Made by a program: the position numbers and the translations under genes
Origin: an uncultured Verrucomicrobiota bacterium
GTDB lineage: Bacteria; Verrucomicrobiota; Kiritimatiellia; CAIVKH01
NCBI GenBank assembly: GCA_937873455.1
Contig: CALMYG010000114.1
Coordinates: 1 to 62,328, forward strand
Direction of reading: 5' to 3'
DNA: 62,328 nt
In this document: in pieces, positions 1 to 62,328 of the stretch
How positions within the stretch are numbered: position 1 is the stretch's first letter
How the letters are laid out: every line of letters starts with the position of its first letter
The notes under the pieces: model-generated
What the model was told of the DNA's origin: nothing
The model's database searches: none
Seen by the model: the letters and a program-made list of their open reading frames with translations, nothing else

Positions 1-324
1 TCGGAAATTTTTCTGCGTGACGTCATGTCCCGCCACCAGCCCAAGACAACACATCGACACCGGGTGACCAAGGTAACCGGAGGCTCCTCGACGCCGCTTT
101 GCTCATGGCGCCGCCCTGCTGAAGCCGGCTGATTTTCCCCACAAAAGCCCACCAATACCATCGTGCTGCCGTTTCTATCAGAAACCGCGCCGCAGTCTGC
201 TTCCGGACCGGCGCAATCCTTGATTCCGAAGGCTGGTAAAGTCCATCGGGCCATGCTTTGGGGCGACTATGCCCGCAGCCGCGATTGTTAACCGGCACCT
301 TCATGCTAACGCTACGCCAAGGCG
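1..324. other. No recognisable gene (left edge)
   Basis: I recognise no gene here. A 93-codon open frame on the minus strand (23-304) has no familiar motif and no convincing ribosome site, so I leave it out. The stretch ends at the point where a truncated intron reverse transcriptase begins, so it probably belongs to whatever replaced the 5' part of that intron. Confidence 0.5.
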
Positions 325-1122
325 GTGGCGTATGACACTATTTCTCTGTCCCCGGTTTCCCGGGCGTATCTGAACAGCGGCATCCTGGTCGGCGAATGCC
401 TTGTGGAGACGGAGAAGGGGACGCCGCAAGGCGGCCCGCTCTCACCGCTGCTGTCCAACATCGTACTCGACGAACTCGACAAGGAGCTCGAAAAGCGCGG
501 CCTGCGCTTCGTCCGCTACGCGGATGACGTCGTGATCTACGTCCGCAGCCCCAAGGCGGCGGAACGGGTGAAACAAAGCGTCTCCGCGTACATCACCGGC
601 AAACTCAAGCTGGTGGTGAACGAGCAGAAGAGTCAAGTAAACCGACCCTGGCACAGCAAGTTCCTCGGCTTTCGCATCACCCGGTTTATGGGACACACCC
701 GCATCGGCGTCCATGAAAAGAGCCTGCGGAAATTCCATGATCGCGTGACCGAAACCACCGCCCGGAAACGGGGTCGAAGTACTCAAGCCGTCGTGCAGGA
801 ACTCAACGAGTACCTGCGCGGGTGGAAAACCTACTTCGATCCGGGACTTGCTGTCACCACGGCCATGGAAATGGACCACTGGATTCGACGGCGGCTCCGC
901 GCCTACGTATGGAAGCAGTGGACACTTCCCCGCACCAAGGTGAGCAATCTGCTCGCCCGCGGCATTAGCCCGAAGTGGGCGCATACGGTCGGAAACACCC
1001 GGAAAGGCCCGTGGCATCTCAGCAAAAACGGGACACTCTGCGCCGCCTTGCCGGATGAATACTTCACTCGTACGCTCGGTCTCGTTCTGCTCGGCCCATC
1101 CCGGAAACAGCCGAACCGCTGA
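325..1122 (+). pseudogene. ltrA: Group II intron reverse transcriptase/maturase, 5'-truncated
   Basis: This is the C-terminal half of a group II intron-encoded protein. Residues 32-45 hold the RT palm motif GTPQGGPLSPLLSN, and the catalytic YADD is at residues 65-68. The maturase (GIIM/X) domain follows, with YLRGWKTYF near 164 and a WIRRRLR...WKQW segment near 188. Family members are usually 400-600 aa, so the fingers and RT0-3 blocks are missing. Homology appears to begin at about position 355; the first ten codons come from unrelated DNA that looks like the end of a repeat (334-354). The intron RNA 3' end lies directly downstream (1115-1186). The protein cannot be active as it stands. Identification is firm; whether the short frame is translated at all is unknown. 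Confidence 0.9.
334..354 (+). repeat. Possible end fragment of the 89-bp repeat family
   Basis: Eighteen of 21 bases match the extended repeat end at 53465-53485, including the ctATTTCT and TGTCCCCG blocks. It coincides with the 5' breakpoint of the intron reverse transcriptase. The match is short, so this is suggestive only. Confidence 0.4.
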
Positions 1123-45536: not shown

Positions 45537-45573
45537 CCACGCCCTTTTGCTAAGGCTTGCCCGCGCATGCCCC

Positions 45574-45589
45574 CCCCCACGCATGGGGG
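45574..45589 (+). promoter_or_regulatory. Dyad CCCCCA-CGCA-TGGGGG, possible LuxR operator
   Basis: Six-base inverted arms with a four-base spacer lie 38 bases after the luxR stop and about 97 bases before the start of the giant gene, a suitable place for an activator site. It is followed by TATATC. Binding is inference. Confidence 0.4.
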
Positions 45590-45686
45590 TATATCGAAAG
45601 CTTGTGGTCGGTTAGTGTTTTCTCTGATGCCTCGACTCCGGTCTCCTTGTCGGTCAATACCAGGAAGAAAAAAGGAAGTATCAATT

Positions 45687-51600: not shown

Positions 51601-53357
51601 CGGCTGGCCTGTCCAACGTGATTCAGGTCACCGCGGGCCGGAATGCGTCCGTGGCCTTGCGGGCCGACGGAACGGCGGTGGGCTGGGGAAGAAATGCGGC
51701 CAACGAGTACGGAGGGCTGAGCGGCGCGACCAATCTGATGGAAGTACAAACGGGCCTTGAACACACCGTCGCCCGTCGTGCCGACGGCACGCTGCTCGTC
51801 TCCGGGACACCCGGATCGCCCCAGGTGACCGGCGCCGCGGGCCTTGAGGATGCCCTGTCGATCGGCAGTGCGCAGAGCCTGACCGCGGCGGCCGTCGTGA
51901 AGAACTGGCCGGTGATCACCTTCGATACGATTTCTTTGGGCACACGCGTCACCAACACGTTTATTCTTCGCAACACCGGGCCGGGTCCGTTGAACGTGAC
52001 CAACTTCATCTTGGTTGGCACGAACACCAATCAGTTCCAGGTGGACACCTCCGCCACGATCATGCCCCTGGCCAGCGGCGCCACCACCACCGTGTCCGTC
52101 ATCTACAACCCCACCGGACCCTTGGGCGTGCGCACCGCAACCCTGCGCCTGTACAGCAACGACCAGCAAATCCCACTCTGGAAAGTTCGCCTCACCGCCG
52201 AAGCCACGGATGACGAACCGCCGGTGTTCCCTCTGTTGGAAGATCTCATTGCCTACGCCAGCGATACCGGCGGCGTGCGGGTACTGCTCCAACCGCTCGC
52301 TGTCGACAACAGCGGCCAGCCGCCGGCGATCACCACCACCCCGCCCACCACCTCGAAATTCCTTCCCGGCTCCAACCTCGTCACCGTGGTCGCCACCGAT
52401 GGGGCCGGCAATGCCGCCACCGGCACGTTCCGGGTGATCGTACGGATCACCAGCGCACCGCCGGTGGTCGGGCCGTCCGACCCGGTGCCGCCGAATCTTG
52501 CCCTGGGCAAAACCCCGTTCGCGCAGAATGTCCTGCCGTTTTTCCCGCACACCATCCCGGCGCTGAACGACGGAATCTACGGCAACAACAGCAGTTGGAT
52601 CGGGTCCACCACCAACAGTTTTGCCGGTATCAACCTCGGGGCCACGCCGGTCCTCATCGACCGCATCGCCTTTGGTCGCGACAACACCGGTATCCAGATC
52701 AGCCGCGCCGAAGGAACCTACATCCTGCAGGTCACCACAACGCCGAATCCCACGGCCGCCACCCCGGACAACGCCTGGCAGACCATCGGTGTGGTCGTCA
52801 ATCCGGGCCTGCTCGATGTCCTGTACCGTCGCAATCTCTTCGCCTTCAAACCGGTGCTCGCCACCGGGGTTCGCATTCTCGTCGCGACCACGGGCCCGGA
52901 AATTGGTATCGATGAAATCGAACTCTACGGGCCGCCCGAACTGGATCCGTTCGCGGTGTGGCAGGCCGCCAACTTCTCTGCGGGCGAACTGCTCGACGCC
53001 GCGATCAGCGGCCCCTTCGCCGATCCCGGCAACACCGGCATCGCGAATCTGTTCCGCTACGCCACCGGCCTCGGCCGCCACGACGACCCCAAACCCGCCA
53101 TGCCGCGCCTGCAGGCGCTCCAGTTCATCTACCGCCGCCTGCTCGACCCGGATGCCGGCGTCGCCTACGCCGTCGAACTCACCACCAACCTGCTCCACGC
53201 CGCCTCCTGGCGCGGAATCGAGATCGCCGACGGTATCACCGAAACCAGCGCGACCCCCAACCCCGACGGCATCACTGAAGACGTCCGCATGTCCATCCCG
53301 CCCGGCACGATCAACCCGGCCCTGAACCTGCGGTTGAAGGTGACACCGGAGGAGTAG
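45687..53357 (+). CDS. Giant exported protein: discoidin-like, RCC1, HYR and choice-of-anchor D modules
   Basis: 2,556 aa from ATG at 45687, chosen because AAAGGAAG lies eight bases upstream and a signal peptide follows (residues 1-36, ending LPAVGG). Order: two discoidin-like modules (about 38-208, 210-391; each has DGxYGNSSSWI and a DEIELY end); RCC1-like repeats (402-685, units like VVAWGTNSHGQVDVPPGLS); choice-of-anchor D (688-777); HYR (782-862); discoidin-like (862-1025); choice D, HYR, choice D, HYR (1035-1418); discoidin-like (1420-1581); choice D and HYR (1592-1777); a second RCC1 set (1795-2071); choice D and HYR (2075-2255); a fifth discoidin-like module (2265-2418); and a C-terminal tail (2420-2556) like those of two other giants here. 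Probably a carbohydrate- or surface-binding protein under the upstream LuxR regulator. Confidence 0.88.
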   Translation: MKNHAVFNRKNQRQIGCYPAMVFASFLFSLLPAVGGIVISGGGLALVEEGGTFAPGNLATNGTAFALNEIGVAPHTIAGVNDGIYGNSSSWIGGTPSSFVGITFGAATARLHKVAFGRDNLGNFTDRALGLYTLQYTTVANPDQNTPDGSWTTIGTLDYQSAGGALFTNPAIRHAFTFDHVWATGFRIKMDSATDFIAIDEIELYRPPSGLSLSGGGLTLLAEGGTFDPNNLATGGVAFAKDELGTPPHTIGGVNDGVYGNSSSWIAGSSNSFIGISLGTSPVTVGRIAFGRDNTGNLEDRVFATYTLQYTTNAAPDNATPDSSWTTIGVMVYAFPDGPDFAYPARRHEFSFTPVSATGIRLAISGAAEADTMVAIDEIELYPPYGPPLLRIEQPAGRPHAMKTRVAVWGDTENGNVTAPTNLLDAQVVVAGLGRVSVLNSNRAYVGWGTIYPILNTDPFGLIGIKAVAHGWLHNLLLDSNGTIKAWAYADANGESIVPTSLTNETVKGIAAGFRFSVALTEAGQVVAWGTNSHGQVDVPPGLSHVTAIAAGFAHVLALKEDGTVEAWGDNSQGQSAVPPGLSGVTAIAAGNHHSLALLSNGAVVAWGWNADGQASVPSGLSNVTAIAGGWLHSLALRQDGTIVSWGANADGQGTIPERLTLARSISAAQKISAAIYSEHVALAFGPLTPPAQRSRTFTIYNDGTGPMAIAQVFTAGDHAELFSLDTTGMAASVPIGGTTSFTVTFAPTNTAEVETTLYILADDPDTPRFAFALTGNHPDNTPPVITTPSNIAVMTTSVGGEVLFFDVVVEDNADTEPFVSTIPPSGSLFPVGVHTVRVTAVDFAGNTSTASFVVNMKLPAPVRVETGGSFSTNNLAFGQQLFVKDFAFFPTHRPEYLHDGVYGNARSWIAGSTNSFLGFVLGSTPVPVQQIAFGRDNNGLATDRYAGTYTIQFTTSATPNSSSTWIDLGTIVHPGESPVPWRRNRYAIFPVAATAIRILVASSGELLCIDEVELYAYDPAPVIGVEYPPDSPLTSQVSTIDFGVQETGLIGATNVVTIRNTGNAYGQILGITTSGAHSNNFVVGTSGMVSDLPHGASTTFSVTFHPTGLGARSAILRIATTDRNEPEFEINLAGISTDTAPPVIASVPDITTYASDPAGIVVFFPAPVVTDNSGEPPVVDVAPPNGSLFPLGTNIVTITATDAANNVATGSFRIIVLPRPDAVIEAPVGTVLSGEPPAYAFGTVQLGSVTTQTFIVRNEGLIPLSISGISVLGAHPGNFILDASGLATNIAAGDDSSFSVTFAPTVHGSRLATVRLLTSDPWLPVFDLSLSGDGLDILPPVITPLADITVHAGSGTGGVRVLYPPIHVTDDSEAVLTVEFAPENGSLMTPGTHPVTITAFDGNNTSTSSFNIVVLQVAYPPDVPVGSAVPFNLAIGKNAFALNSAFFPAHDVTYINDELYGNNRSWIGATLSSFIGVNLGATTVKVNRIAFSRDHNGMFVDRTDGTYTLQFTTTPNPNAATPDSAWQTLGSITYPGNVSTPSRRNMYAFPDVWATGVRLKILSSGSPVAIDQIEIYGDVGHVTLTQLPDIPLTSGVSTITFAPQDLATPSVPRTVTLGNLGPEPIRITGIAVTNNQAGDFILTPPNLVTTLAVGASTTLQAVFQPPALGPRETTLRVRVENATLAAFDVALAGTGVDVSAPVIVTPGDITVFIPLNETNAVVTYPPAQVSDNSGFPADVTYSHPSGSVFPLGITPVTITAVDPSSNTSTATFAIGVQYEPTLSLEVIEGNPFVQKNIVQAWGATFIGLPMPSNLPSATAVSLGYQHGLILLEDGTVVAWGDDSAGQRTVPAGLSNVIAIAAGAWHSLAITADGTVTAWGKHEPDILKPPVVVPPGLTGVVQVSGGYYMSAARLANGSIVVWGGNQQGQLTVPPGLTNVIDISCSTDHCLAALTDGTVVAWGDNEFGKLNVPAGLSNVIQVTAGRNASVALRADGTAVGWGRNAANEYGGLSGATNLMEVQTGLEHTVARRADGTLLVSGTPGSPQVTGAAGLEDALSIGSAQSLTAAAVVKNWPVITFDTISLGTRVTNTFILRNTGPGPLNVTNFILVGTNTNQFQVDTSATIMPLASGATTTVSVIYNPTGPLGVRTATLRLYSNDQQIPLWKVRLTAEATDDEPPVFPLLEDLIAYASDTGGVRVLLQPLAVDNSGQPPAITTTPPTTSKFLPGSNLVTVVATDGAGNAATGTFRVIVRITSAPPVVGPSDPVPPNLALGKTPFAQNVLPFFPHTIPALNDGIYGNNSSWIGSTTNSFAGINLGATPVLIDRIAFGRDNTGIQISRAEGTYILQVTTTPNPTAATPDNAWQTIGVVVNPGLLDVLYRRNLFAFKPVLATGVRILVATTGPEIGIDEIELYGPPELDPFAVWQAANFSAGELLDAAISGPFADPGNTGIANLFRYATGLGRHDDPKPAMPRLQALQFIYRRLLDPDAGVAYAVELTTNLLHAASWRGIEIADGITETSATPNPDGITEDVRMSIPPGTINPALNLRLKVTPEE

Positions 53358-53464: not shown

Positions 53465-53485
53465 GGCGCTATTTCTGTGTCCCCG
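53465..53485 (+). repeat. Solo end of the 89-bp repeat family
   Basis: Carries TTCTGTGTCCCC (53473-53484) preceded by GGCGCTA; the same extended end recurs at 62212-62232 with one difference. It sits at the breakpoint of the truncated toxin gene. Confidence 0.7.
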
Positions 53486-53578
53486 ATGAGTCTCACGAAT
53501 TCCGTTCCTAGATTGTTGGCGCGCTCCTCGTACCAAGCTCGCGAATGCTCAAGCTCCCCGTACACATCGGGGTATACA

Positions 53579-53821
53579 TCAACGTTGTACATTCGCGTTC
53601 CGGTATAACCGGTCTCTAACCTCTTCCCAGGGTATGCATTGGACGGTCCCGGAGTCGATCTCACGCAGTCGTTTGTCGATCTCGGCTTGCCAGGTCTTTT
53701 CGGTGTCTTGATCCGGCGGGGCGTCAAGACTGGCGATGAGAGCCTCCGCGATGCGGGCACGATCCGTGTCGGACTGCTTCAGCGCGCGGTCCAGTATTTC
53801 GTCGGCAACGGTAGTGCTCAT
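53579..53821 (-). CDS. Antitoxin, addiction-module component family
   Basis: 80 aa starting MSTTVADEILDRALKQSDTD. The sequence follows the small putative addiction-module antitoxin family (TIGR02574-like): a helical N-terminus, then RARIAEALIASLD, then an acidic helix and IDSGTVQCIPWEEVRDRL at the C-terminus, which would wrap the toxin. AAGGA in front of 53821 supports that ATG; an in-frame TTG at 53851 is less likely. The partner toxin gene overlaps its 3' end but is truncated, so this antitoxin may be an orphan or may still repress its own promoter. Confidence 0.85.
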   Translation of the reverse strand: MSTTVADEILDRALKQSDTDRARIAEALIASLDAPPDQDTEKTWQAEIDKRLREIDSGTVQCIPWEEVRDRLYRNANVQR

Positions 53822-53910
53822 GATCCATTCCTTCACAAATGTTACGGTCAAAATGTACCACTTCGGCTAGATGGCGTGAAGCCCGGCTTTGTCGCCCACC
53901 GCCAACGATC

Positions 53911-53988
53911 TTACCCGTAGGGTCCCCGCTCTTGATCAACCTTCAGCTTCTCCTTGATGTATTTCGCGATGTCCTTGGGCAACCGGCG
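53911..53988 (-). pseudogene. 3'-end remnant of a HARE-HTH nuclease-like gene
   Basis: Reads ...PKDIAKYIKEKLKVDQ, then ERGPYG and a stop, matching the last residues of the intact gene at 60528-61505 (PKDIAKYIKEKLKIDQ, EPGPYG) with several base differences. The upstream part is missing: only three bases separate it from the toxin fragment at 53991. It is an older paralogous scar, not a recent copy. Confidence 0.8.
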
Positions 53989-53990
53989 CT

Positions 53991-54089
53991 CTATCTTCCG
54001 ATCCAGTAGGCCGGCCGTCTATGTAGGTGCATCGTGGCCTGAATGATAATCTCATCATGTTCAACCCGGTATAGAAGCGCACGGTAAAC
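53991..54089 (-). pseudogene. C-terminal third of a ParE-like toxin
   Basis: Begins directly at the edge of the repeat copy at 54090 and reads VYRALLYRVEHDEIIIQ, then ATMHLHRRPAYWIGR and TAG. This is the standard ParE/RelE C-terminus (Y-R-V-E, then H-x-x-R-R-P-x-Y-W). It lacks a start and the first 60 or so residues. Those could be the fragment at 61734-61927, which ends at another copy of the same repeat. Confidence 0.8.
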
Positions 54090-54179
54090 GGGGACACAGA
54101 ACGATCCGTTGTCATAACGCGTTGATTTCCAAGGATTGGAACATGCGCCGAGGACTTTCGGGACAACTTCTGTGTCCCC
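54090..54179 (+). repeat. 89-bp repeat, copy 1
   Basis: Perfect 12-base terminal inverted repeats GGGGACACAGAA and TTCTGTGTCCCC. Inside, GTTGTC can pair with GACAAC and TTCCAA with TTGGAA, so a single strand would fold into one long interrupted hairpin. Apart from the last base it is identical to copy 2, and it differs by one internal base from copies 3 and 4. Confidence 0.92.
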
Positions 54180-54251
54180 AATGTGTCATTTCGGTGGGCG
54201 CAGGGTATCGTCTAGCCAAGCGGAAGGCGAAGCAAGTGGAGGGGACGGAGG

Positions 54252-54602
54252 CTAATGAGTCGTCGCCGGCACATAGCCATCCCGGGTTTTGATAACAGCG
54301 TTACGGTCTATCCTCCGCATGCGTCTGGTGCCATCGTAGATGGCCCATCCGTCGCCCTCGGGCATTGCGGTAATGACTCGGCGTGTCCTGGTTTCGGTAA
54401 AGGTATAATTTCGTCCAACGAGCGCGGCCTGGATACTTTTTCCTCCCGGACCAGACAGCAACCAACCGCCGGAATTGGCCGTCGTAGACGAGTACGGGGC
54501 GATGGCCGCGAAGAGCGCCGCGGGATAATCGCGAGCCGTCTGCGCGGCCGTAGCGAGGCCGGCGCTGATGACGAGCATGATGATGGCTGCTGAACGTTTC
54601 AT
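54252..54602 (-). CDS. Small exported protein of unknown function
   Basis: 116 aa with a clear signal peptide (MKRSAAIIMLVISAGLATAA). The mature 95 residues contain SGGWLLSGPGGKSIQAALVG and a basic C-terminal part (TRRMRRIDRNAVIKTRDGY), with no family I recognise; a small periplasmic or secreted beta protein is likely. The gene lies alone between repeat copies 1 and 2, which face the same way and are almost identical, so it looks like the cargo of a two-repeat unit. Confidence 0.6.
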   Translation of the reverse strand: MKRSAAIIMLVISAGLATAAQTARDYPAALFAAIAPYSSTTANSGGWLLSGPGGKSIQAALVGRNYTFTETRTRRVITAMPEGDGWAIYDGTRRMRRIDRNAVIKTRDGYVPATTH

Positions 54603-54663
54603 GGGCGTAGACTACCATGAGGCACAACTTGTTTCGAGAGCATTTCCGCGTCCCAACTCAAAC

Positions 54664-54752
54664 GGGGACACAGAACGATCCGTTGTCATAACGCGTTGAT
54701 TTCCAAGGATTGGAACATGCGCCGAGGACTTTCGGGACAACTTCTGTGTCCC
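54664..54752 (+). repeat. 89-bp repeat, copy 2
   Basis: Same orientation and sequence as copy 1, ending CCC followed by T. With copy 1 it brackets the 116-aa exported protein gene. Confidence 0.92.
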
Positions 54753-54777
54753 TGCGATACTGCGATCACCCGCCCGA

Positions 54778-55128
54778 TTACCCGATGGCCGCCATGATCG
54801 ACGTGAAATCACGCTCCTTGGGCATGACAAAAAGGCATTTCCCGCCGCTACGCGACGCCCACACCGCCCCGATGGCCCGCTTCTCTTCCGCGTCTGTCCA
54901 CAAAAAGCCGCCTTTGTACTCCACCACCAGAATCCGGCCATCCTTGAGCTGGCAGACGAAGTCGGGATAAAACCAATCCTTGGACAAATGCAGCCGGAAC
55001 GAGGTATTTTTACGGGCCAGATTGCGCACCCAGAATTCGACCTCGGGAAGCGCGTCGAGAAAAGCCGCGCACTTTCTATTTCCTCGTACGAAACCCAGCA
55101 AGCGCAGTGCAATCCACAATCCGATCAA
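54778..55128 (-). pseudogene. Type III restriction enzyme Res subunit, C-terminal remnant
   Basis: About 100 residues match the nuclease end of type III Res proteins: LPEVEFWVRNLARKNTSF, then the PD-(D/E)XK core FYPDFVCQLKDGRILVVEYKG with the catalytic acid and E-x-K residues present, then EKRAIGAVW and GGKCLFVMPK. The helicase part (about 800 residues) is gone, so this is a remnant. Its 5' end overlaps the stop of the PD-(D/E)XK gene upstream, suggesting a deletion joined the two. Confidence 0.8.
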
Positions 55129-56107
55129 GCGTCTTTGGTGTGAAAACCTTCCCCTTTGTGTGAAAGATCATCTGGCGCATGTCTTCTCGGCGGACACCAA
55201 AGCCCCTCCCGGCCAAGCAAGCCACGACCTCATAGGAGGATTTTCCGTCGCGCGCACGTTGCTCGGACATCTGGCAAAGACGTATGACACGAGTTGCCTT
55301 GTCCCGTGCGGTCCCGTCGTCTTCGGTCAGTTTTGCCTCGATGATTACGGCAGCATGAAATTCGTCCGGTATGATGAAGTCTGGAGCCTGATCAAAACCG
55401 GCAAGGCGCTCCGCCCTCTTCGTCTTGCGAAACGTCACACCCGCCGATACTAACTGCTCTTCAATGGCACATTCCAAACCATCACCGACCAATTCGCTAA
55501 CGGAGTCACGATGCCCGGCAAAAGGCCTTCCAAGAAATCGCTCGTAAAGCAACATTGCGTAGGGAGCGCCCAAATCCGCAAGCTGTCGCACCGAGGAGAG
55601 GCCACCGAGGCTGTCGGCCTTGCAGAAACGGTGTAGACGGTCCGGCGGTACATCGGGGCATCCCTCTATAATTAGTTCGCATGCAGTTTCTACGAGAGCG
55701 TTAATCCTCGCGCCTGTCGTAGCGCTAGGCTTGAGTGGTCGGTCGGGCTGCGATCTGATGTTGCGGTCAAGCGTTCTGGCTGCATTCTGAGGTATTTCGA
55801 TTCCTTTACGACTCGACGTAATGTAGGCCCATTCAGGTGGCGTAAAGCCCAGGATTGTCCTCAGTACGACAAGAACAACTGGGCATTCGAGCGCAGCATT
55901 GAAAACGCGCGGCGCTGTCAGTTGAGCGAAGCCCTCTGTCGCACACTTAAGCGCCTCATATCCCGATGCAAACACGGAGTACTCCAGAAAACCATCGCCT
56001 TTGGGCATAATGAGAAACTCGGAAGCAAGGCTCGAGAAAACGGCATCAACATATGCATCCGGGTTGGTCAACACCTCTTCCTGGCTGGCTTCAAAAGGGT
56101 ATTTCAT
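55076..56107 (-). CDS. PD-(D/E)XK restriction endonuclease, probable partner of the adjacent methyltransferase
   Basis: 343 aa when started at 56107, where GGAG lies seven bases upstream; a longer frame to 56188 runs deep into the methyltransferase gene. The C-terminal third carries a PD-(D/E)XK core: D243 in APDFIIPDEF, then E257 and K259 in VIIEAKLTEDD. The N-terminal two thirds are helical, with no named domain I recognise. The 5' end overlaps the methyltransferase 3' end by 17 bases, so the two are coupled, which fits a type II-like restriction-modification pair. The recognition sequence cannot be read from sequence. Confidence 0.75.
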   Translation of the reverse strand: MKYPFEASQEEVLTNPDAYVDAVFSSLASEFLIMPKGDGFLEYSVFASGYEALKCATEGFAQLTAPRVFNAALECPVVLVVLRTILGFTPPEWAYITSSRKGIEIPQNAARTLDRNIRSQPDRPLKPSATTGARINALVETACELIIEGCPDVPPDRLHRFCKADSLGGLSSVRQLADLGAPYAMLLYERFLGRPFAGHRDSVSELVGDGLECAIEEQLVSAGVTFRKTKRAERLAGFDQAPDFIIPDEFHAAVIIEAKLTEDDGTARDKATRVIRLCQMSEQRARDGKSSYEVVACLAGRGFGVRREDMRQMIFHTKGKVFTPKTLDRIVDCTALAGFRTRK

Positions 56108-58292
56108 ATTCATTCTCCGAAGTTTCGCGCACCATGCCGACCGGCGTCCATTCTTGAACGTGAGACGCATTGGTGAAAGATGCATCAAGAGCCGTCAAGA
56201 CAGCGGCGAGACCACCAAAACTGGAAAACCACGATTCCACGGCTGTCATCTTCTCAGTTGTTTTTAAGCTTCGTTGCCATGTTCCACGAAGATTCCACAC
56301 AGCCAACCGGGTCATGTGGCCACACACGATGCAACGGATATCCCCCTGCGTTGCTTTCAGTCCGCCTTCGGCCAAGGCACTGATCTCCTGCCGAATGAGG
56401 CCGACGAGTTCCGTCGCCGCGCCTACGATCCACCGTCGAGGCACCAGCCCCGTTTGACGACAGACAAACACAGTGTCAACCACGGAGGAGCGAGTCCCGT
56501 TGATATGGATTGAGGCCCCCATCTCGGCGGGACACGGCAAGGACGCGGAACAGGTGAGGCCGGCGTCCAGAATGGCGACAGCCAGAGGGACATATGCGTC
56601 AATTCTGTTGTGATGAAACGTGAAAACTAGCGGACCACCTGACTTCAGCCGCCCGGCGGCCATGCGAAAGACCGCCGACATACCTTCGGTGAAATGCGCC
56701 AGATCACGTCCCATGTTGAGATTGCCGGTCAACTCTCCCGCATTTCTGGTGGTATCGCTGGCAAATTCTTGATGTGCTGCGCCGGCAAGCTTTCTGAGCC
56801 AGACATAGCAGAAGTCCATTAACTCCGCGTATTGAACGTTTCCGAAGTATGGAGGGTCGGTGAAAACCCCGTCAAATAAAGCGCTTCCATGAAGTGTGGT
56901 CGAGTCGCCGCAGATGAGATCAACTTGCCTATCTTCATGGTTGCTGGAATCGCGGGAGCGAGTTCCGATCCATTCCCCGGCTATCGGCACTTCAACCTTG
57001 CGTTGTCCTGTGCCTCGAACCTCAAATGGCTGCTGACAATATCGCTTCGCCTTCGCGAACTTCTCCGTGATGTTGAACCAGCCACCGCTACCGACCGGCA
57101 GGCCGCGCGAGCCCTCGATGCCTAAAATGTTGGATTCGCACTGGATCAACCCGACCGGAAATCCATGGACGGAGAAGATGTCGAGTGACTTCAACGCCAT
57201 GATATCGTACCGGCAAAGCATATTTTGATACCGGAGCAGGTCGGACAGATTGGTCGACAGCGCTTCACGAACGCGCTCGTTTGGATAGGCGGAAATCCAT
57301 CGGCAACTCAATTCGAGACCAATCAACTGACGGGCATTGAACAACTCCCGATAGCGGGTATATCCCCAGCGATGAAGGCGTTCGGTCTCATCACCTTTGG
57401 GGATAGCGTCTTCCGGTATGAATCGAGGGCGCATTTTCCGGAGATATTCATCCGCCTCGGCAAATTTACACAAATCGTCTGCGTCGGGCGACTTGAACAT
57501 CCGCCCTTTGCGCCGTTCGCTCCCCGGTGCCTGTGGTGCGTGGTATTCGATCGCGAACAACCGGTGTTCAGGAACGCCTTTTTCCGGATAGGCCACTGGG
57601 GCGTCGCAGTGCAGGCAACGTGATTTATTCCGTCCAGCCGTATTTTTCGAGGGCAATTTGTTTGCACAATGGGGGCATGGGCCTGGGTTGTTACGTAACC
57701 CTGACTCGAATAGCCCGCCGCAATATCCGCAGGCAAAGACATTGGCCGTATGACGAACATCCTGAGCGATAAGGTGGTTGGGAAACAGGTCGTGAGATCG
57801 GCCACATGATCCGCAGGTTGCGGTCTTAACCCAAAGGAAGTATTTGACCTCGGCAAGCCCGCCTGTCTTCGGGCATTTTGTCATATAAAGGTGGCCGATT
57901 TCCTTCCGCAGGTCGGCGCGCAGCCTTGCTGCGGCCTTGGCATATTCACCAAGATCAAGGTCTTGAATCTGCTGCCGAACAATCCACCAGGACATCGGGT
58001 TTATATCCGCAGCGGTTACCATGCAGCCCAAACGATTCGCCTCTACGACAGTGGTTCCTCCCCCCATAAACGGGTCAAGGATGTGCTTGTCTGAAAAATT
58101 ATGCCCATGAAAATAGGTCTGCTCAATGCGCTGGTCATCGAATTCGGATAGAATAAGCGACCGAAAAAGGGTGCCCGGCCGCCGGGCGAACCACTTGTGC
58201 ACCGCAATCAGGGGACGGTAATTTTGCTGGATTTGTTTCTCGGCCAGCGCAAGACGAGCAACAAAAGGAATATGGAAGTGGCGTTCAATCAT
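56091..58292 (-). CDS. DUF1156-type amino DNA methyltransferase with zinc ribbons
   Basis: 733 aa. The opening NYRPLIAVHKWFARRPGTLF is the signature of DUF1156-containing methyltransferases. The SAM-binding motif I DPFMGGGT is at 73-80 and the catalytic DPPY at 477-480 (TDPPYFGNVQYAE), giving an N6-adenine or N4-cytosine specificity. Four CxxC pairs lie between them (158/161, 186/189, 204/207, 224/227), most likely two zinc ribbons in a large insertion that may read DNA. Proteins of this family occur in defence islands. The start at 58292 has a weak ribosome site, and a 9-bp hairpin lies 27 bases upstream (58320-58343), so expression may be controlled at that point. Confidence 0.85.
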   Translation of the reverse strand: MIERHFHIPFVARLALAEKQIQQNYRPLIAVHKWFARRPGTLFRSLILSEFDDQRIEQTYFHGHNFSDKHILDPFMGGGTTVVEANRLGCMVTAADINPMSWWIVRQQIQDLDLGEYAKAAARLRADLRKEIGHLYMTKCPKTGGLAEVKYFLWVKTATCGSCGRSHDLFPNHLIAQDVRHTANVFACGYCGGLFESGLRNNPGPCPHCANKLPSKNTAGRNKSRCLHCDAPVAYPEKGVPEHRLFAIEYHAPQAPGSERRKGRMFKSPDADDLCKFAEADEYLRKMRPRFIPEDAIPKGDETERLHRWGYTRYRELFNARQLIGLELSCRWISAYPNERVREALSTNLSDLLRYQNMLCRYDIMALKSLDIFSVHGFPVGLIQCESNILGIEGSRGLPVGSGGWFNITEKFAKAKRYCQQPFEVRGTGQRKVEVPIAGEWIGTRSRDSSNHEDRQVDLICGDSTTLHGSALFDGVFTDPPYFGNVQYAELMDFCYVWLRKLAGAAHQEFASDTTRNAGELTGNLNMGRDLAHFTEGMSAVFRMAAGRLKSGGPLVFTFHHNRIDAYVPLAVAILDAGLTCSASLPCPAEMGASIHINGTRSSVVDTVFVCRQTGLVPRRWIVGAATELVGLIRQEISALAEGGLKATQGDIRCIVCGHMTRLAVWNLRGTWQRSLKTTEKMTAVESWFSSFGGLAAVLTALDASFTNASHVQEWTPVGMVRETSENEYEIPF

Positions 58293-58319
58293 AATGCTCG
58301 TAATTTATTTTGAATCCTT

Positions 58320-58343
58320 CAGCAGGTGAAACGGCACCTGCTG
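58320..58343 (-). promoter_or_regulatory. 9-bp inverted repeat upstream of the methyltransferase
   Basis: CAGCAGGTG and CACCTGCTG are perfect inverted arms around AAACGG, placed 27 bases before the methyltransferase start. It could be an operator, for example for autogenous control, or an attenuator-like hairpin. Confidence 0.45.
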
Positions 58344-58465
58344 ATGATGATTAACCACCGCCTCTTTCCCAATCCAGTTCAGTGTCGGCATAGTTGGACT
58401 CTTTTACTGAATTGACGGCCATCTGTCACGTTGTCATCGGGAGTAACGACTACCCGCACGCGGGC

Positions 58466-58489
58466 CGAGAAATGATCGATCATTTCTCG
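58466..58489. promoter_or_regulatory. 24-bp perfect palindrome over the 3' end of the two-TM gene
   Basis: Half-site CGAGAAATGATC, centred on GATC; the TGA stop of the upstream gene lies inside it. A loopless perfect palindrome suggests a protein-binding site or a cruciform; as RNA it would give an end hairpin. Confidence 0.5.
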
Positions 58490-59496
58490 CCAGATATTGT
58501 GTTTGTCAGCAACTCGACAACCGATTTCGCCGCAGGGCCATCTGAAGAAGCACCAGCACTATAGCCTGTGGGCTGGGGTGCAAATATGCATGCCGATGCA
58601 TGTGTAAGAATCACCTCTTTGTTGGCGACTTCCTTCGCAGCCTCTACAAGCGCTTTATATGTCATTAATGCATTCTGGCGATGCCTGTTGATGACGGCAT
58701 TATGTTTATGTGCCATAAAATTCTTCGTGGCAAGGTATACCATATACGACAGAACGCCAAAGATAAGAACCTTGCTAATAGCGAGCTGTGCGGTCTGATA
58801 TACATCCTCGGGCTTTATGACGGGAATCTTGTGCAAGAAGAGTGTAAAGACAGCATATACTCCTAAAATAATTGCTGAATTCCTAATGTCTTTTCGAGAT
58901 AATATTGCATTGTCTTCATGTTCTTTCGCGTCATCACGAAAATAGATTGCTTGCTGTGATACGCCATGTTCGGCAGCGGCACGTCGAACCAGTTCCAAAA
59001 CCCGTTCCGCTTCTTGGCTTTTAGTTCTAAGTTCATCCGATAGCTTGTTGCCCATATCCGATACAGTCTGGATCGTCGCCCTCGCCTGTCGTTCGAGACC
59101 CTGAAAATCAGTCGATTTACTTGCCGAAAAAGATATGAATGATTGAAGAGCGTTGAAGCATGGCTGGTAAGCTTGATCCAGCTTAATTATCAAGCTGTCT
59201 CTTTCAGTGACCGGTTTCCCCGGCTGAAACTCTAGAATCTGTTTGAGGATGTTGTAGTCACTATTTGCTTGGCTAACTATGGCGTTCAAGTGCGATTCGG
59301 GGAGATCATCCAGTATTGTTTGAGACACCCTTTTGTATAGCGCAATTAACCGCTCTGCTGGCTGAACCGATTCTGAAAAGTTTACGACTGAGCCCAATTC
59401 CTTTTCTCGAGGAAGTAAACTTGTGTCAAAGCTCTGCAGTCGCGCGAGAGACTCAGCCGTCTGTTGTCGAAGTTGTTTCTCTTGGTTTGATGGCAT
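58480..59496 (-). CDS. Two-TM coiled-coil membrane protein, candidate defence component
   Basis: 338 aa. Residues 1-200 are helical and rich in Gln, Glu and Leu (coiled-coil likely, for example SQEAERVLELVRRAAAEHG). Two membrane segments follow at about 208-225 (NSAIILGVYAVFTLFLHKI) and 242-262 (VLIFGVLSYMVYLATKNF). A short helical tail (TYKALVEAAKEVANKEV) follows. I recognise no family. GGAG six to seven bases before ATG fixes the start. Local sequence is visibly A+T-richer than the core genes, as expected for acquired DNA. Its place between nuclease-like genes and the methyltransferase suggests a membrane effector or anchor, but this is inference. Confidence 0.65.
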   Translation of the reverse strand: MPSNQEKQLRQQTAESLARLQSFDTSLLPREKELGSVVNFSESVQPAERLIALYKRVSQTILDDLPESHLNAIVSQANSDYNILKQILEFQPGKPVTERDSLIIKLDQAYQPCFNALQSFISFSASKSTDFQGLERQARATIQTVSDMGNKLSDELRTKSQEAERVLELVRRAAAEHGVSQQAIYFRDDAKEHEDNAILSRKDIRNSAIILGVYAVFTLFLHKIPVIKPEDVYQTAQLAISKVLIFGVLSYMVYLATKNFMAHKHNAVINRHRQNALMTYKALVEAAKEVANKEVILTHASACIFAPQPTGYSAGASSDGPAAKSVVELLTNTISGEK

Positions 59497-59535
59497 ATCT
59501 TACTCCTTTTTTCTTTTAGATCGAACTTCCGGGTT

Positions 59536-59575
59536 ATGCGGACTGGCGACCAGTCCGCAGACCGCCAGTCCGCAT
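59536..59575. terminator. 13-bp inverted repeat hairpin between two accessory genes
   Basis: ATGCGGACTGGCG (59536-59548) and CGCCAGTCCGCAT (59563-59575) are perfect inverted arms. The 14-base loop contains a third partial copy (CAGTCCGCAG), allowing alternative foldings. It lies after the stop of the 59593 gene (minus strand) and has no T-run. Confidence 0.5.
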
Positions 59576-59592
59576 AGCCCATTGTTGGGGCA

Positions 59593-60333
59593 CTATTCAG
59601 CTATATTAGTTTCCGCCGCGAGACGAGCCACTGAATGCAGTGCGACGACTTTGGTCGGCAATTTTGATTTATCGGTCTCGTCATCAATCCAGCATACCAA
59701 AACATCGATTTCTTCAGGCTTGTGATTCTGCTTAAACTCAGATGATTTCTTCTTCCACTCGCCCATGACATATTCTCCGGACACGCGGTCTATCAGGATC
59801 GCATCAGGTTTTGTCGCGTCCACGTATTTCGCGCCTAACTTATCGAGCAAGCTTTGGCTCGCGCCGCAGCAATACTGATAATCGGTGTACTCTTGGAGAA
59901 CGCCAAATGCCATGTAGACATCTGTCTCGGTTTCAGGTTCCCAGTGGTTGAGATTCTCGGGTCGGAATGGTTCGATGAATATATGCCGCAGATTCTGTTT
60001 TGAGAATATCGTCCCCGTTGGTTTTGATGTTGGAGGACCGAACGATGTCGGGACTGGCGAGAGAATCGTTATTGACTGCGTACCCTGCGCATTCTGTGTT
60101 GTGAACTGTATTTTGTCGCCTTCCTTGAGCTGGAGCTTGTAGTAGAACGCCGCCATACCAGACAAGCCGCCTTGTTTGTTGAGCGTTCCCTCAAGATTAA
60201 ACGTCGAGTCAGATGGAATTAGAACTGCGACTTTACCAGGCTGGAACGAGCTGTCTCGCATCGCATCAGCACCGAGGTACAAACTTTTGAGGTTTAGGTA
60301 ACTCGTGGAAATAGTTGTTGTGTATGTCTTCAT
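59593..60333 (-). CDS. Nuclease-like (PD-(D/E)XK-type) accessory protein
   Basis: 246 aa from ATG at 60333, which has AAAGG six bases upstream; an ATG six bases earlier abuts that site and is less likely. The N-terminal half is beta-rich (YYKLQLKEGDKIQFTT) and may bind DNA or a cofactor. Residues about 175-225 read PDAILIDRVSGEYVMGEWKK, with a D and an E-x-K in the spacing of a PD-(D/E)XK core, then IDVLVCWIDDE, a typical following strand. I infer a nuclease or inactive nuclease-like partner. It sits in the minus-strand accessory locus between the HARE-HTH gene and the two-TM gene. Confidence 0.6.
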   Translation of the reverse strand: MKTYTTTISTSYLNLKSLYLGADAMRDSSFQPGKVAVLIPSDSTFNLEGTLNKQGGLSGMAAFYYKLQLKEGDKIQFTTQNAQGTQSITILSPVPTSFGPPTSKPTGTIFSKQNLRHIFIEPFRPENLNHWEPETETDVYMAFGVLQEYTDYQYCCGASQSLLDKLGAKYVDATKPDAILIDRVSGEYVMGEWKKKSSEFKQNHKPEEIDVLVCWIDDETDKSKLPTKVVALHSVARLAAETNIAE

Positions 60334-60527
60334 CGTCATCCTTTACTCAGAAAGTTATTTGTCTGTTTTCTTGTGTCATGTAAGCCCTTGAACCAGCGCC
60401 AATAAAACCCCGCATATCAATCCCTGGCGATGAATATTTGCTCAGGACGTCAAGATCGAACGATGATTAATTAGTGTCGCTGCTTGTGCCTGTTTTGGGT
60501 GCCACCCGCCTTCCACCCCACACAGGC

Positions 60528-61505
60528 TCACCCGTAAGGTCCAGGCTCTTGATCAATCTTCAGTTTCTCCTTGATGTATTTCGCGATGTCTTTGGGCACG
60601 TCGTCAAACTCGTTCCGGTGAATCCGTTTGGATTCGTAGTCGATTTTCACGTCCTGCAGGAATCGGTCGAAGTCCCGGTTTTGCTCGCACAGTTTATTGA
60701 TCGTTTCCCAGTCGAGTTGTGCCCGGCCGCGTGCAGGGTAGAGAATGCGAGAGGCGTCGATGTCGGTTGGATCGAGTTGGATAATCCCGATGCCGAACGA
60801 CGAGGCCAGCCGCTCCAGCTCAGCCAGAAATTCATCGTCCTGGAGAATATCCACCGCCACCAGATAGCCCTCGTGCGCCCAGGATGAATTCGAGACGGCT
60901 TGAAAATAGGATTCCCGGTAATTGGCCTTGTTCAGTCCCTTCTTGATCTCGAACGAGAACAGCCGCAACGAGTTGTTGTCCGAGAGCCGGTTAAATTCGA
61001 TTACATTGGGCCGCCAATCATCCAGGGGAAGATAGAACCCGACCATGTCAGGGTGAATCCATTCGTTGTACCCGCCCTTGGTCGATTTTTCGTGCATGAT
61101 CGTCTTGGTGTAGATCGAGCGGCCACGGTTGAACGAGGGGTTGGAGTTTGCGTAGTACGTGAGCAGCGGATGCAGATCGCGCTCGTGGTACTCCGTCTTT
61201 TTCTCGGCCTTCCTCCCCTCCTCCTTCTCCAGCTTGCTGATCGCGTCGGCGGGGAGTTCGGCCGCCCGTTCTTTAAGGAAGAATCGTGTCGGTCGCGACC
61301 CGACCTTGATAAATAGGCCGTCATCGTTGTCGCGCACTTCCACATACAGGCGGGCGCCGAGACTTTGCCAAGGCGTCTTGCCGCTCGTTTCCAGCTTGGC
61401 CGTGAGTCCACGGTCCTGTCCGACTTTCCATATCTCCTGATAGATCATCGGCTGGGTCGCCTGCTTCAGGACGTCATAGGCCAGGTCAAGAAACGAGTAA
61501 CTCAT
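60528..61505 (-). CDS. HARE-HTH restriction endonuclease-like protein (COG2958 type)
   Basis: 325 aa. Residues 1-80 form a HARE-HTH (HB1, ASXL, restriction endonuclease) winged helix: FLDLAYDVLKQATQPMIYQE, then TPWQSLGARLYVEV and RFFLKERA. The C-terminal domain has a nuclease-like core, FEIKKGLNKANYRESYFQAV (E186, K188/K189), preceded by NEWIHPDMVGF, which could supply the Asp. HARE-HTH modules are thought to sense modified DNA and direct nucleases to it. First gene of the minus-strand accessory locus. A 3'-end remnant of a paralogue lies at 53911-53988. GAGG ten bases before ATG is acceptable. Confidence 0.75.
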   Translation of the reverse strand: MSYSFLDLAYDVLKQATQPMIYQEIWKVGQDRGLTAKLETSGKTPWQSLGARLYVEVRDNDDGLFIKVGSRPTRFFLKERAAELPADAISKLEKEEGRKAEKKTEYHERDLHPLLTYYANSNPSFNRGRSIYTKTIMHEKSTKGGYNEWIHPDMVGFYLPLDDWRPNVIEFNRLSDNNSLRLFSFEIKKGLNKANYRESYFQAVSNSSWAHEGYLVAVDILQDDEFLAELERLASSFGIGIIQLDPTDIDASRILYPARGRAQLDWETINKLCEQNRDFDRFLQDVKIDYESKRIHRNEFDDVPKDIAKYIKEKLKIDQEPGPYG

Positions 61506-61644
61506 TTCGTCATCGCCTCATGTTCTTTTCTTGCGCAGGTCATGGATTCATCTCACTTGTGCGGCGTATCGTAGCGGCGTTTTCCCGGGCGGTAAAGGCG
61601 GGAAACGTAGGCTGGAAGCGCGATAGCGCTTCTCCGGGGTAAAC

Positions 61645-61733
61645 GGGGACACAGAACGATCCGTTGTCATAACGCGTTGATTTCCAGGGATTGGAACATG
61701 CGCCGAGGACTTTCGGGACAACTTCTGTGTCCC
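61645..61733 (+). repeat. 89-bp repeat, copy 3
   Basis: Same orientation as copies 1 and 2, with TTCCAGGGATTGGAA in place of TTCCAAGGATTGGAA. On the minus strand a toxin frame runs straight into it. Confidence 0.92.
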
Positions 61734-61927
61734 TGAAACACCTCCAAGCGGCGACGAACATTTCCCGTGACGACAGGCCAACGTTCCGGGTACTCGCTAA
61801 TGTCTTGAACGGCCGTTTCGATCTTCGCGAGAAACTCCAGACCCGGTCTGGTTGCCTGATGTTCATAATACCTTGCCGCGTCGAGCATTTCCAGTTCGGC
61901 GGGACGGAGAAAGCGAACGGGCTTCAC
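61667..61927 (-). pseudogene. ParE-like toxin, N-terminal two thirds, interrupted by repeat copy 3
   Basis: From GTG at 61927 the chain reads MKPVRFLRPAELEMLDAARY, then PGLEFLAKIETAVQDI and WPVVTGNVRRRLEVF, a textbook ParE/RelE N-terminus of about 64 residues. At about 61734 it enters repeat copy 3, and the last 22 residues are repeat-encoded. The GTG overlaps the stop of the antitoxin fragment (GTGA). The missing C-terminus could be the fragment at 53991-54089, which abuts repeat copy 1 on the same strand; together they would give the usual 90-95 aa. Confidence 0.8.
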
Positions 61928-62038
61928 GAGATGGCGTTTCGGGCATCGCTCAATATTTCTTGCGCCGATCTTGCCGGGATTTTCCCGCTTTTGTATTCAC
62001 GGTACCGACGGTCAGCTTCTTCAATCCAGGGGGTAAAC
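61924..62038 (-). pseudogene. Antitoxin C-terminal fragment, cut by repeat copy 4
   Basis: Reads PWIEEADRRYREYKSGKIPA, then RSAQEILSDARNAIS and TGA, matching the C-terminal helix and tail of small addiction-module antitoxins. The N-terminus is replaced by repeat copy 4, through which an open frame continues. Overlap of its stop with the toxin start (GTGA) shows the original operon order. Confidence 0.7.
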
Positions 62039-62127
62039 GGGGACACAGAACGATCCGTTGTCATAACGCGTTGATTTCCAGGGATTGGAACATGCGCCGA
62101 GGACTTTCGGGACAACTTCTGTGTCCC
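62039..62127 (+). repeat. 89-bp repeat, copy 4
   Basis: Identical to copy 3 over the unit; like copies 3 and 5 it is preceded by GGGGTAAAC. It forms the 5' breakpoint of the antitoxin fragment. Confidence 0.92.
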
Positions 62128-62211
62128 TGTAACACCTGCAACACCCAGTACAACGTCCACCTTTGATGGCGCATCGTAACGCATTGCTTCCGGGCGGTAG
62201 AGGCGGGAAAA

Positions 62212-62232
62212 GGCGCTGTTTCTGTGTCCCCG
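62212..62232 (+). repeat. Solo end of the 89-bp repeat family
   Basis: TTCTGTGTCCCC (62220-62231) preceded by GGCGCTG, nearly the same extended end as at 53465-53485. It lies between copies 4 and 5. Confidence 0.7.
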
Positions 62233-62277
62233 GTTTTTTCCCCGGTTTTTCGTTAGTTTTAAAATGGCGGGGTAAAC

Positions 62278-62328
62278 GGGGACACAGAACGATCCGTTGT
62301 CATAACGCGTTGATTTCCAGGGATTGGA
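62278..62328 (+). repeat. 89-bp repeat, copy 5 (runs off the window)
   Basis: The first 51 bases match copies 3 and 4; the rest lies beyond the window edge, so the array continues to the right. Confidence 0.9.

What the first reader, a model, noticed from the sequence alone, without database searches (positions are those of the whole stretch)
53991..61927. A defence-like cassette appears to split one ParE toxin gene at an 89-bp repeat
Seen: the first 64 or so residues of a ParE-like toxin (61927 down to about 61734, minus strand) end at repeat copy 3. A ParE-like C-terminus (54089-53991, same strand, downstream) starts exactly at repeat copy 1. The two copies face the same way and enclose a restriction/nuclease gene set. 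The joined halves have the length and motif order of one toxin, and the antitoxin fragment upstream overlaps the toxin start as in a normal operon. Inferred: a repeat first entered the toxin gene, and a cassette was then gained between repeats, possibly as a circle. The exact junction bases cannot be fixed, so in-frame continuity is only possible, not shown.
Basis: partly seen in the sequence, partly recalled or inferred. Interest (0 to 1): 0.85.

Follow-up and report, generated by a model that had tools for sequence, protein, structure and literature searches.

The report
Repeat-split toxin gene around defence genes
In this unnamed bacterial genome, two pieces of what was likely one ParE-family toxin gene sit beside two same-facing copies of a short hairpin-forming repeat, with a mixed set of predicted DNA-defence genes between them; the repeat is likely a mobile element that broke the toxin, while the partner antitoxin is probably still whole.

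Summary
Confirmed. ParE pieces at 61736-61927 and 53994-54089 (minus), searched apart, match one 96-residue subfamily: 55 of 56 full-length relatives align both; two other genomes hold single intact genes matching both. The fit is not seamless: six positions at the split are unmatched, so the break likely replaced about 18 bases. The repeat is a 90-base hairpin (z -5.8) with ends GGGGACACAGAA (24 exact sites, reversed control 0); one Y1 (IS200-like) transposase gene here lies between inverted ends of nearly that sequence. A second ParE nearby stops at a degenerate copy. Gene order in a same-genus genome (secA-lnt-prfB-trpC) places the two pieces on opposite sides of one locus. With a 55-base overlap to contig C3 it also makes the antitoxin probably whole on the chromosome; window 62030-62328 (copies 4, 5) is an alternative path. 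The 'cassette' is a mosaic: its methylase-nuclease pair stands without the other genes in 78 of 80 loci. A circle could not be tested. Likely a mobile-element family breaking toxins within a growing defence island: a new member of a known kind.

The parts
61736..61927 (-). ParE1 toxin, N-terminal piece (64 codons)
   Evidence: Homologs; PF05016 weak (E 0.011, below cut-off)
53991..54089 (-). ParE1 toxin, C-terminal piece (32 codons plus stop)
   Evidence: Same subfamily as the N piece; no Pfam hit alone
54090..54179 (+). Repeat copy 1, both GGGGACACAGAA ends, 90 nt hairpin
54664..54752 (+). Repeat copy 2, identical to copy 1 over 93 nt (54660-54752)
61645..61733 (+). Repeat copy 3; block shared with copy 4 (98%) runs 61636-61747
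62039..62127 (+). Repeat copy 4, on the alternative assembly path, inside the antitoxin
62278..62328 (+). Repeat copy 5, cut by the contig end
61924..62029 (-). Antitoxin 1, C-terminal part (PF09720 positions 30-54); 61975-62029 identical to C3:1-55, where the gene continues unbroken
62030..62328 (.). Alternative graph path with copies 4 and 5; not the path supported by gene order
60528..61505 (-). HARE-HTH protein (325 aa); COG2958-like by recall
   Evidence: PF05066
59593..60339 (-). 248-aa protein of unknown family
   Evidence: No family above cut-off
58480..59496 (-). 338-aa protein of unknown family
   Evidence: No family above cut-off
56091..58292 (-). DUF1156-type DNA methyltransferase (733 aa)
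55076..56116 (-). Predicted nuclease that accompanies the methylase; PD-(D/E)XK type by eye only
   Evidence: Present in 78 of 80 methylase loci; no family above cut-off
54778..55128 (-). C-terminal remnant of a type III restriction enzyme
   Evidence: PDLC03650 positions 789-876 of 898
54252..54602 (-). Small protein (116 aa), signal-peptide-like start by eye
   Evidence: no NCBIfam family
53896..53981 (-). Remnant of another HARE-HTH gene 3' end, 85% identical to 60513-60598
53579..53821 (-). Antitoxin 2, PF09720 positions 4-54 of 54
53485..53592 (-). ParE2 toxin N-terminal stub, stopping at a degenerate repeat copy
   Evidence: Six relatives at 77-91% over about 33 residues
53373..53484 (.). 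Degenerate repeat copy that cuts ParE2 (one exact end, the other degenerate by eye)
1..354 (+). Tail and terminus of a second Y1 (IS200-like) transposase element
   Evidence: 92.7% identical to the C22 copy; identity stops within a base of the GGGGACAGAGAA terminus

Best explanation
Two pieces of what was likely a single ParE toxin gene lie at one chromosomal locus, separated by same-facing copies of a roughly 90-base hairpin-forming repeat and a mosaic of predicted defence genes. Shown: both pieces belong to one 96-residue toxin subfamily, have no other DNA copy in the draft genome, and sit on opposite sides of a locus whose outer neighbours (secA-lnt and prfB-trpC) are adjacent in a same-genus genome. 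Shown: the repeat ends match, but for one base at one end, the ends around a Y1 (IS200-like) transposase gene in the same genome. Inferred: the repeat is a non-autonomous element moved by that or a similar transposase; it landed in the toxin and about 18 bases were lost; defence genes then built up between copies, by recombination between repeats or by block insertion. Inferred: the toxin is dead and the antitoxin is kept, as in the neighbouring second toxin-antitoxin pair, because losing the toxin first is the survivable order of decay.
For: Same subfamily: 55 of 56 full-length relatives align both pieces, 53 with one fixed offset; single intact genes in L035 and L036 match N at 74% and 67% and C at 72% and 76%. 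No second DNA copy of either piece in the genome. A database protein (P0001) with the same fused tail but one different residue suggests the split in a second sequence. Synteny: secA-lnt-prfB-trpC on one contig in G001 and G018, lnt-prfB in G029 and G017. Element: 24 GGGGACACAGAA sites against 0 control; hairpin z -5.8, 0 of 200 shuffles as good; Y1 gene between inverted ends on C22; two Y1 copies lose similarity within a base of that terminus. A second ParE stops at a copy of the same family, its antitoxin intact. Lower GC in the 3-kb bins from 54 kb on: 0.556, 0.499, 0.531, against 0.565-0.634 elsewhere.
Against: Six positions at the split are unmatched, so the join is not a clean insertion. 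No target duplication was seen (by eye). Copies 3-5 share 60 or more identical bases, longer than the 55-base assembly k-mer, so which flank pairs with which copy rests on the assembler. Five of the six Y1 genes found have no GGGGACAC or GGGGACAG end within the roughly 1.5 kb fetched on each side; one of these five has other GGGACA ends. Copies elsewhere, looked at by ORF listing for 11 loci, were not seen inside toxin genes. That the transposase acts on the short copies is inferred from end sequence only.
Confidence: 0.75

Rival explanations
1. The repeat-flanked block (copy 1 to copy 3) inserted into the toxin in one step, like a composite element, rather than growing between repeats later.
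For: Outer copies face the same way and the toxin flanks would look the same under this model. GC of the block is low.
Against: The block holds unrelated modules, a remnant of a type III enzyme and a third internal copy, which looks like stepwise build-up. None of the 80 methylase loci examined carries the block. No target duplication seen (by eye).
Confidence: 0.25
2. The sampled population is mixed: some cells have an intact toxin-antitoxin operon, and the contig merges them with cells carrying the interrupted form.
For: C3:1-55 equals window 61975-62029 over exactly 55 bases, the same overlap as at 3 other contig ends, so two continuations of the antitoxin exist in the data. An intact-toxin bridge would be too short to be kept in a genome bin (inference).
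Against: No other contig of the genome carries either toxin piece. A second sequence appears to show the same split.
Confidence: 0.3
3. The two pieces come from two different ParE genes whose remnants happen to lie near each other.
For: Other ParE genes and remnants exist in the genome. The closest database match differs between the pieces (P0005 at 90% for C, 72% for N).
Against: Same subfamily, complementary coverage with no overlap, same strand and order, no second copy of either.
Confidence: 0.1
4. The junctions are assembly errors at repeats.
For: Repeat copies are longer than the 55-base k-mer, and copy 4 with the window end contradicts the chromosomal path.
Against: The N piece with the same tail occurs in a sequence with one residue changed. 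Gene order agrees with the outer flanks.
Confidence: 0.1

Closest known systems
REP-associated tyrosine transposases (RAYT) with REP/REPIN elements (PMC2817692, passages read; PMC3116915, abstract)
   Same: Y1 (PF01797) gene between two inverted ends; short hairpin-forming copies elsewhere in the genome sharing those ends.
   Different: 24 end sites, where REPs are usually over 100 per genome; copies inside two toxin genes; one long hairpin with 12-base ends rather than paired short REPs.
Miniature inverted-repeat transposable elements (definition recalled)
   Same: Short, no gene, inverted ends matching those around a transposase gene.
   Different: No target duplication seen; PMC2817692 (passage) says IS200/IS605 relatives make no larger ones.
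ParE/RelE toxin (PF05016) with PF09720 antitoxin
   Same: Antitoxin stop overlapping the toxin start; both toxin pieces fall in one ParE subfamily.
   Different: Toxin in two pieces, 7.6 kb apart.
Defence islands (PMC10121019, start of abstract in a search listing)
   Same: Restriction, methylase and toxin-antitoxin genes clustered at one locus.
   Different: Interleaved with copies of one short repeat; no search for an integrase was run.
Stand-alone DUF1156-type methylase plus nuclease pair
   Same: Gene order, and 76-78% nuclease identity to the three nearest loci (L098-L100).
   Different: Here placed between repeats with other genes.

Membership tests
ParE toxin subfamily | Both pieces align to the same full-length members | tested here: met
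   55 of 56
ParE toxin subfamily | All conserved positions present | tested here: not met
   Six positions at the split unmatched, three of them invariant in 44 of 44 relatives of 96 residues; N piece below the Pfam cut-off
RAYT/REPIN | PF01797 gene flanked by inverted copies of the repeat end | tested here: met
   1 of 6 Y1 genes, on C22, one end differing by one base; terminus shared with window 1-354
RAYT/REPIN | High copy number, extragenic | tested here: not met
   24 end sites; copies at breaks in two toxin genes
RAYT/REPIN | Hairpin folding | tested here: met
   -24.5 kcal/mol as DNA, z -5.8, 0 of 200 shuffles as good
RAYT/REPIN | Mobilised by the transposase | not testable with these tools
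   Needs a cutting or transposition assay
Composite transposon | Block found as a unit at another site | tested here: not met
   Of 80 methylase loci, 0 carry the 248- or 338-aa protein and 1 a weak HARE match
Integron cassette array | Integrase and attC sites | not tested
   No integrase search was run; repeat ends compared with recalled attC boxes by eye only

The most novel reading that the evidence does not exclude
Toxin genes of chromosomal toxin-antitoxin pairs act as safe landing pads: a Y1-linked hairpin element breaks the toxin and spares the antitoxin, and the repeat copies left behind become recombination anchors through which defence modules are collected, a process still going on in the sampled population.
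Probability: 0.2. Interest if true: 0.65.

Novelty: new member of a known kind. Interest (0 to 1): 0.42.

Why it matters
If right, it gives a concrete, checkable route by which toxin-antitoxin loci decay (toxin first, twice in 8 kb) and by which defence islands may grow around short repeats. It also shows how gene order in a relative plus k-mer overlaps between contigs can separate a real gene split from an assembly fork.

Tried and rejected
Rejected: the repeat as an integron attC site (its ends do not fit the recalled attC box patterns, by eye; no integrase search was run). Rejected: the cassette as a fixed unit. Rejected: copy 4 as a plain insertion in the chromosomal antitoxin (C3 and synteny). 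Rejected: a second genomic DNA copy of either toxin piece. Led nowhere: NCBIfam on the toxin pieces, solved-structure searches (best E 0.0062 to an unrelated enzyme; 0 hits), a loose pattern scan for the flank of copy 3 (104 sites against 73 in the reversed control, only the two window sites exact), paper searches (0 papers; 25 held two or more terms, 8 listed, 2 used; 14 held the terms, 12 listed, none opened; 1 listed, not opened; 6 listed, none opened).
Full report
What is there. The window is the whole of contig C114 of an unnamed 4.12 Mb draft genome in 197 contigs, 92.6% complete. Minus-strand toxin pieces lie at 61736-61927 (64 codons) and 53994-54089 (32 codons and a stop). The first abuts repeat copy 3, the second repeat copy 1, and the copies face the same way. 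Five close copies of the repeat lie between 54090 and the contig end at 62328; the fifth is cut by that end.

One toxin or two. Searched apart, the N piece finds 61 proteins at E <= 1e-10, the first of them its own cluster. Of the 56 with at least 90 residues, 55 align both pieces; 53 do so with the same offsets (N residues one to one, C residues at +64) and 2 with another C offset. Two genomes of the same class hold one intact gene that matches both pieces: L035 (74% N, 72% C) and L036 (67% N, 76% C). Neither piece has another DNA copy in the genome; the two other own-genome matches to the N piece are 32% and 42% alike. So the pieces are very probably one gene. The closest database protein differs between pieces (P0005 is 90% to C but 72% to N), which I take as noise of short queries.

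The split is not clean. Homology ends at N residue 61 in 50 of 55 relatives (60 in 5) and resumes at C residue 4 in 42, 5 in 11 and 1 in 2. Six positions between them have no counterpart, three of them invariant in the 44 relatives of exactly 96 residues. The 14 bases next to copy 3 match those next to copy 4, which sits at another site, at 12 of 14 positions, so they look like part of the element. The break therefore probably replaced roughly 18 bases of toxin.

What the repeat is. The core is 89-90 nt with 12-nt inverted ends GGGGACACAGAA. As single-stranded DNA, copy 1 folds into one long hairpin at -24.5 kcal/mol (shuffles -10.8, sd 2.4; z -5.8; 0 of 200 as good). The end has 24 exact sites in this genome, with 0 for the reversed pattern. 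Of 54 relatives searched, 14 have any, at most 8 in one; the reversed control hits 8 of them, at most 5 in one, so most single sites there are chance. Six Y1 (PF01797) genes were found in the genome. One, on contig C22, lies between two inverted ends of this type, one of them with a single base changed. The other five show no GGGGACAC or GGGGACAG end within the roughly 1.5 kb fetched on either side, though one has different GGGACA ends. The window's own first 354 bases are the tail of a second C22-like element, 92.7% identical, and the identity stops within a base of the GGGGACAGAGAA terminus. Y1 genes between inverted repeats are the arrangement described for RAYT genes and their REPs (PMC2817692, passages; PMC3116915, abstract), though copy number here is low. 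That this transposase moves the short copies is inferred.

The second toxin. Antitoxin 2 (53579-53821) matches PF09720 positions 4-54 of 54. Its ParE2 partner runs about 33 residues at 77-91% identity to the six relatives found, then stops at a degenerate repeat copy. No close match to its missing part exists elsewhere in the genome; the best other genes are 45% and 42% alike. Two toxins in 8 kb are thus broken at this repeat family while both antitoxins remain. That toxin-first loss is the survivable order is general toxin-antitoxin reasoning, recalled, not a result here.

The antitoxin and the window end. C3:1-55 is identical to window 61975-62029 over exactly 55 bases. Of six contig ends tested against 13 own-genome loci and the window, four overlap another contig by exactly 55 bases (C3, C70, C74, C114 start), C102 matched none, and the C114 end repeats 61 bases within C114 itself. 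So 55 is very likely the assembly k-mer and this is a graph fork. C3 continues with the antitoxin's N part (PF09720), RsgA, prfB and trpC. The window carries secA and lnt. In the same-genus genome G001 and in G018, secA, lnt, prfB and trpC follow each other on one contig, and lnt stands by prfB in G029 and G017; in the other 10 of the 14 regions fetched, some of them short, lnt was not found beside prfB. C3 thus most likely follows the window on the chromosome, and the antitoxin is whole on that path. Window 62030-62328 is a second continuation: another strain, another copy, or a mis-join. In G001 the gap between lnt and prfB is 1.3 kb, with no match to the toxin, antitoxin or defence queries and no GGGGACAC or GGGACACAG end. 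The two toxin pieces lie on opposite sides of the insert.

Is the split an artefact? The repeat copies exceed the k-mer, so flank pairing among copies 3-5 relies on the assembler. Against an artefact, protein P0001 (86 aa; cluster of 2 sequences, longest contig 63,501 bases) has the same fused tail and differs from the window at one residue. Its row bears the mark used for proteins the window itself encodes, so it may be a near copy from the same site rather than an independent one. An intact-toxin allele in the same population cannot be excluded, because its bridge would be too short to be binned (inference).

The genes between. The methylase has 233 relatives among genome contigs, of which the tool kept 80. 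At tblastn E <= 1e-4 in those 80, its nuclease partner is present in 78, the 248- and 338-aa proteins in 0, HARE in 1 (23% identity), ParE in 1 (L144, unsplit), and a 10-base repeat-end match in 2, about what chance gives. A type III restriction remnant and a HARE 3' remnant beyond the toxin C piece point to repeated gain and loss. GC there is lower than elsewhere in the window. This is a defence mosaic, not one cassette. No call could test a circle.

Verdict. The order of events is open between stepwise growth and block insertion. I found no print account of a toxin gene split this way in an open-access library searched; those searches were few and narrow.

Noticed in passing
window 1-1122: The contig begins in a Y1 transposase element tail (1-354) directly followed by a group II intron reverse transcriptase/maturase fragment (PF00078, PF08388).
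   Followed up: partly
L008 198-1403 (G000:C6 80622-81827): A Fic/DOC gene (PF02661) lies between two same-facing ends of the repeat family 1.4 kb apart, another toxin-like gene in repeat brackets.
   Followed up: partly
L032 753-1420 and L033: A YefM-YoeB pair plus a GGGGACACAGAA end sits in an 868-nt block 99.2% identical on contigs C164 and C171; its borders look integron attC-like by eye.
   Followed up: partly
G000:C3 262-361: A hybrid repeat shares its left end with the window copies but has a different right half, which recurs at window 62174-62243 (97%): modular exchange of element halves.
   Followed up: no
L009, L007; window 62231-62245: Several copies are preceded by short tandem iterations of the flank ending in GGGG (by eye), as if end joining slipped on a G run.
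   Followed up: no
window 45567-53357: A 2596-codon reading frame with five 118-nt internal repeats (four at 65-73% to the reference copy) lies directly beside the island.
   Followed up: no
window 18247-29214: A 3655-codon reading frame, repeat-rich and surface-protein-like by eye.
   Followed up: no
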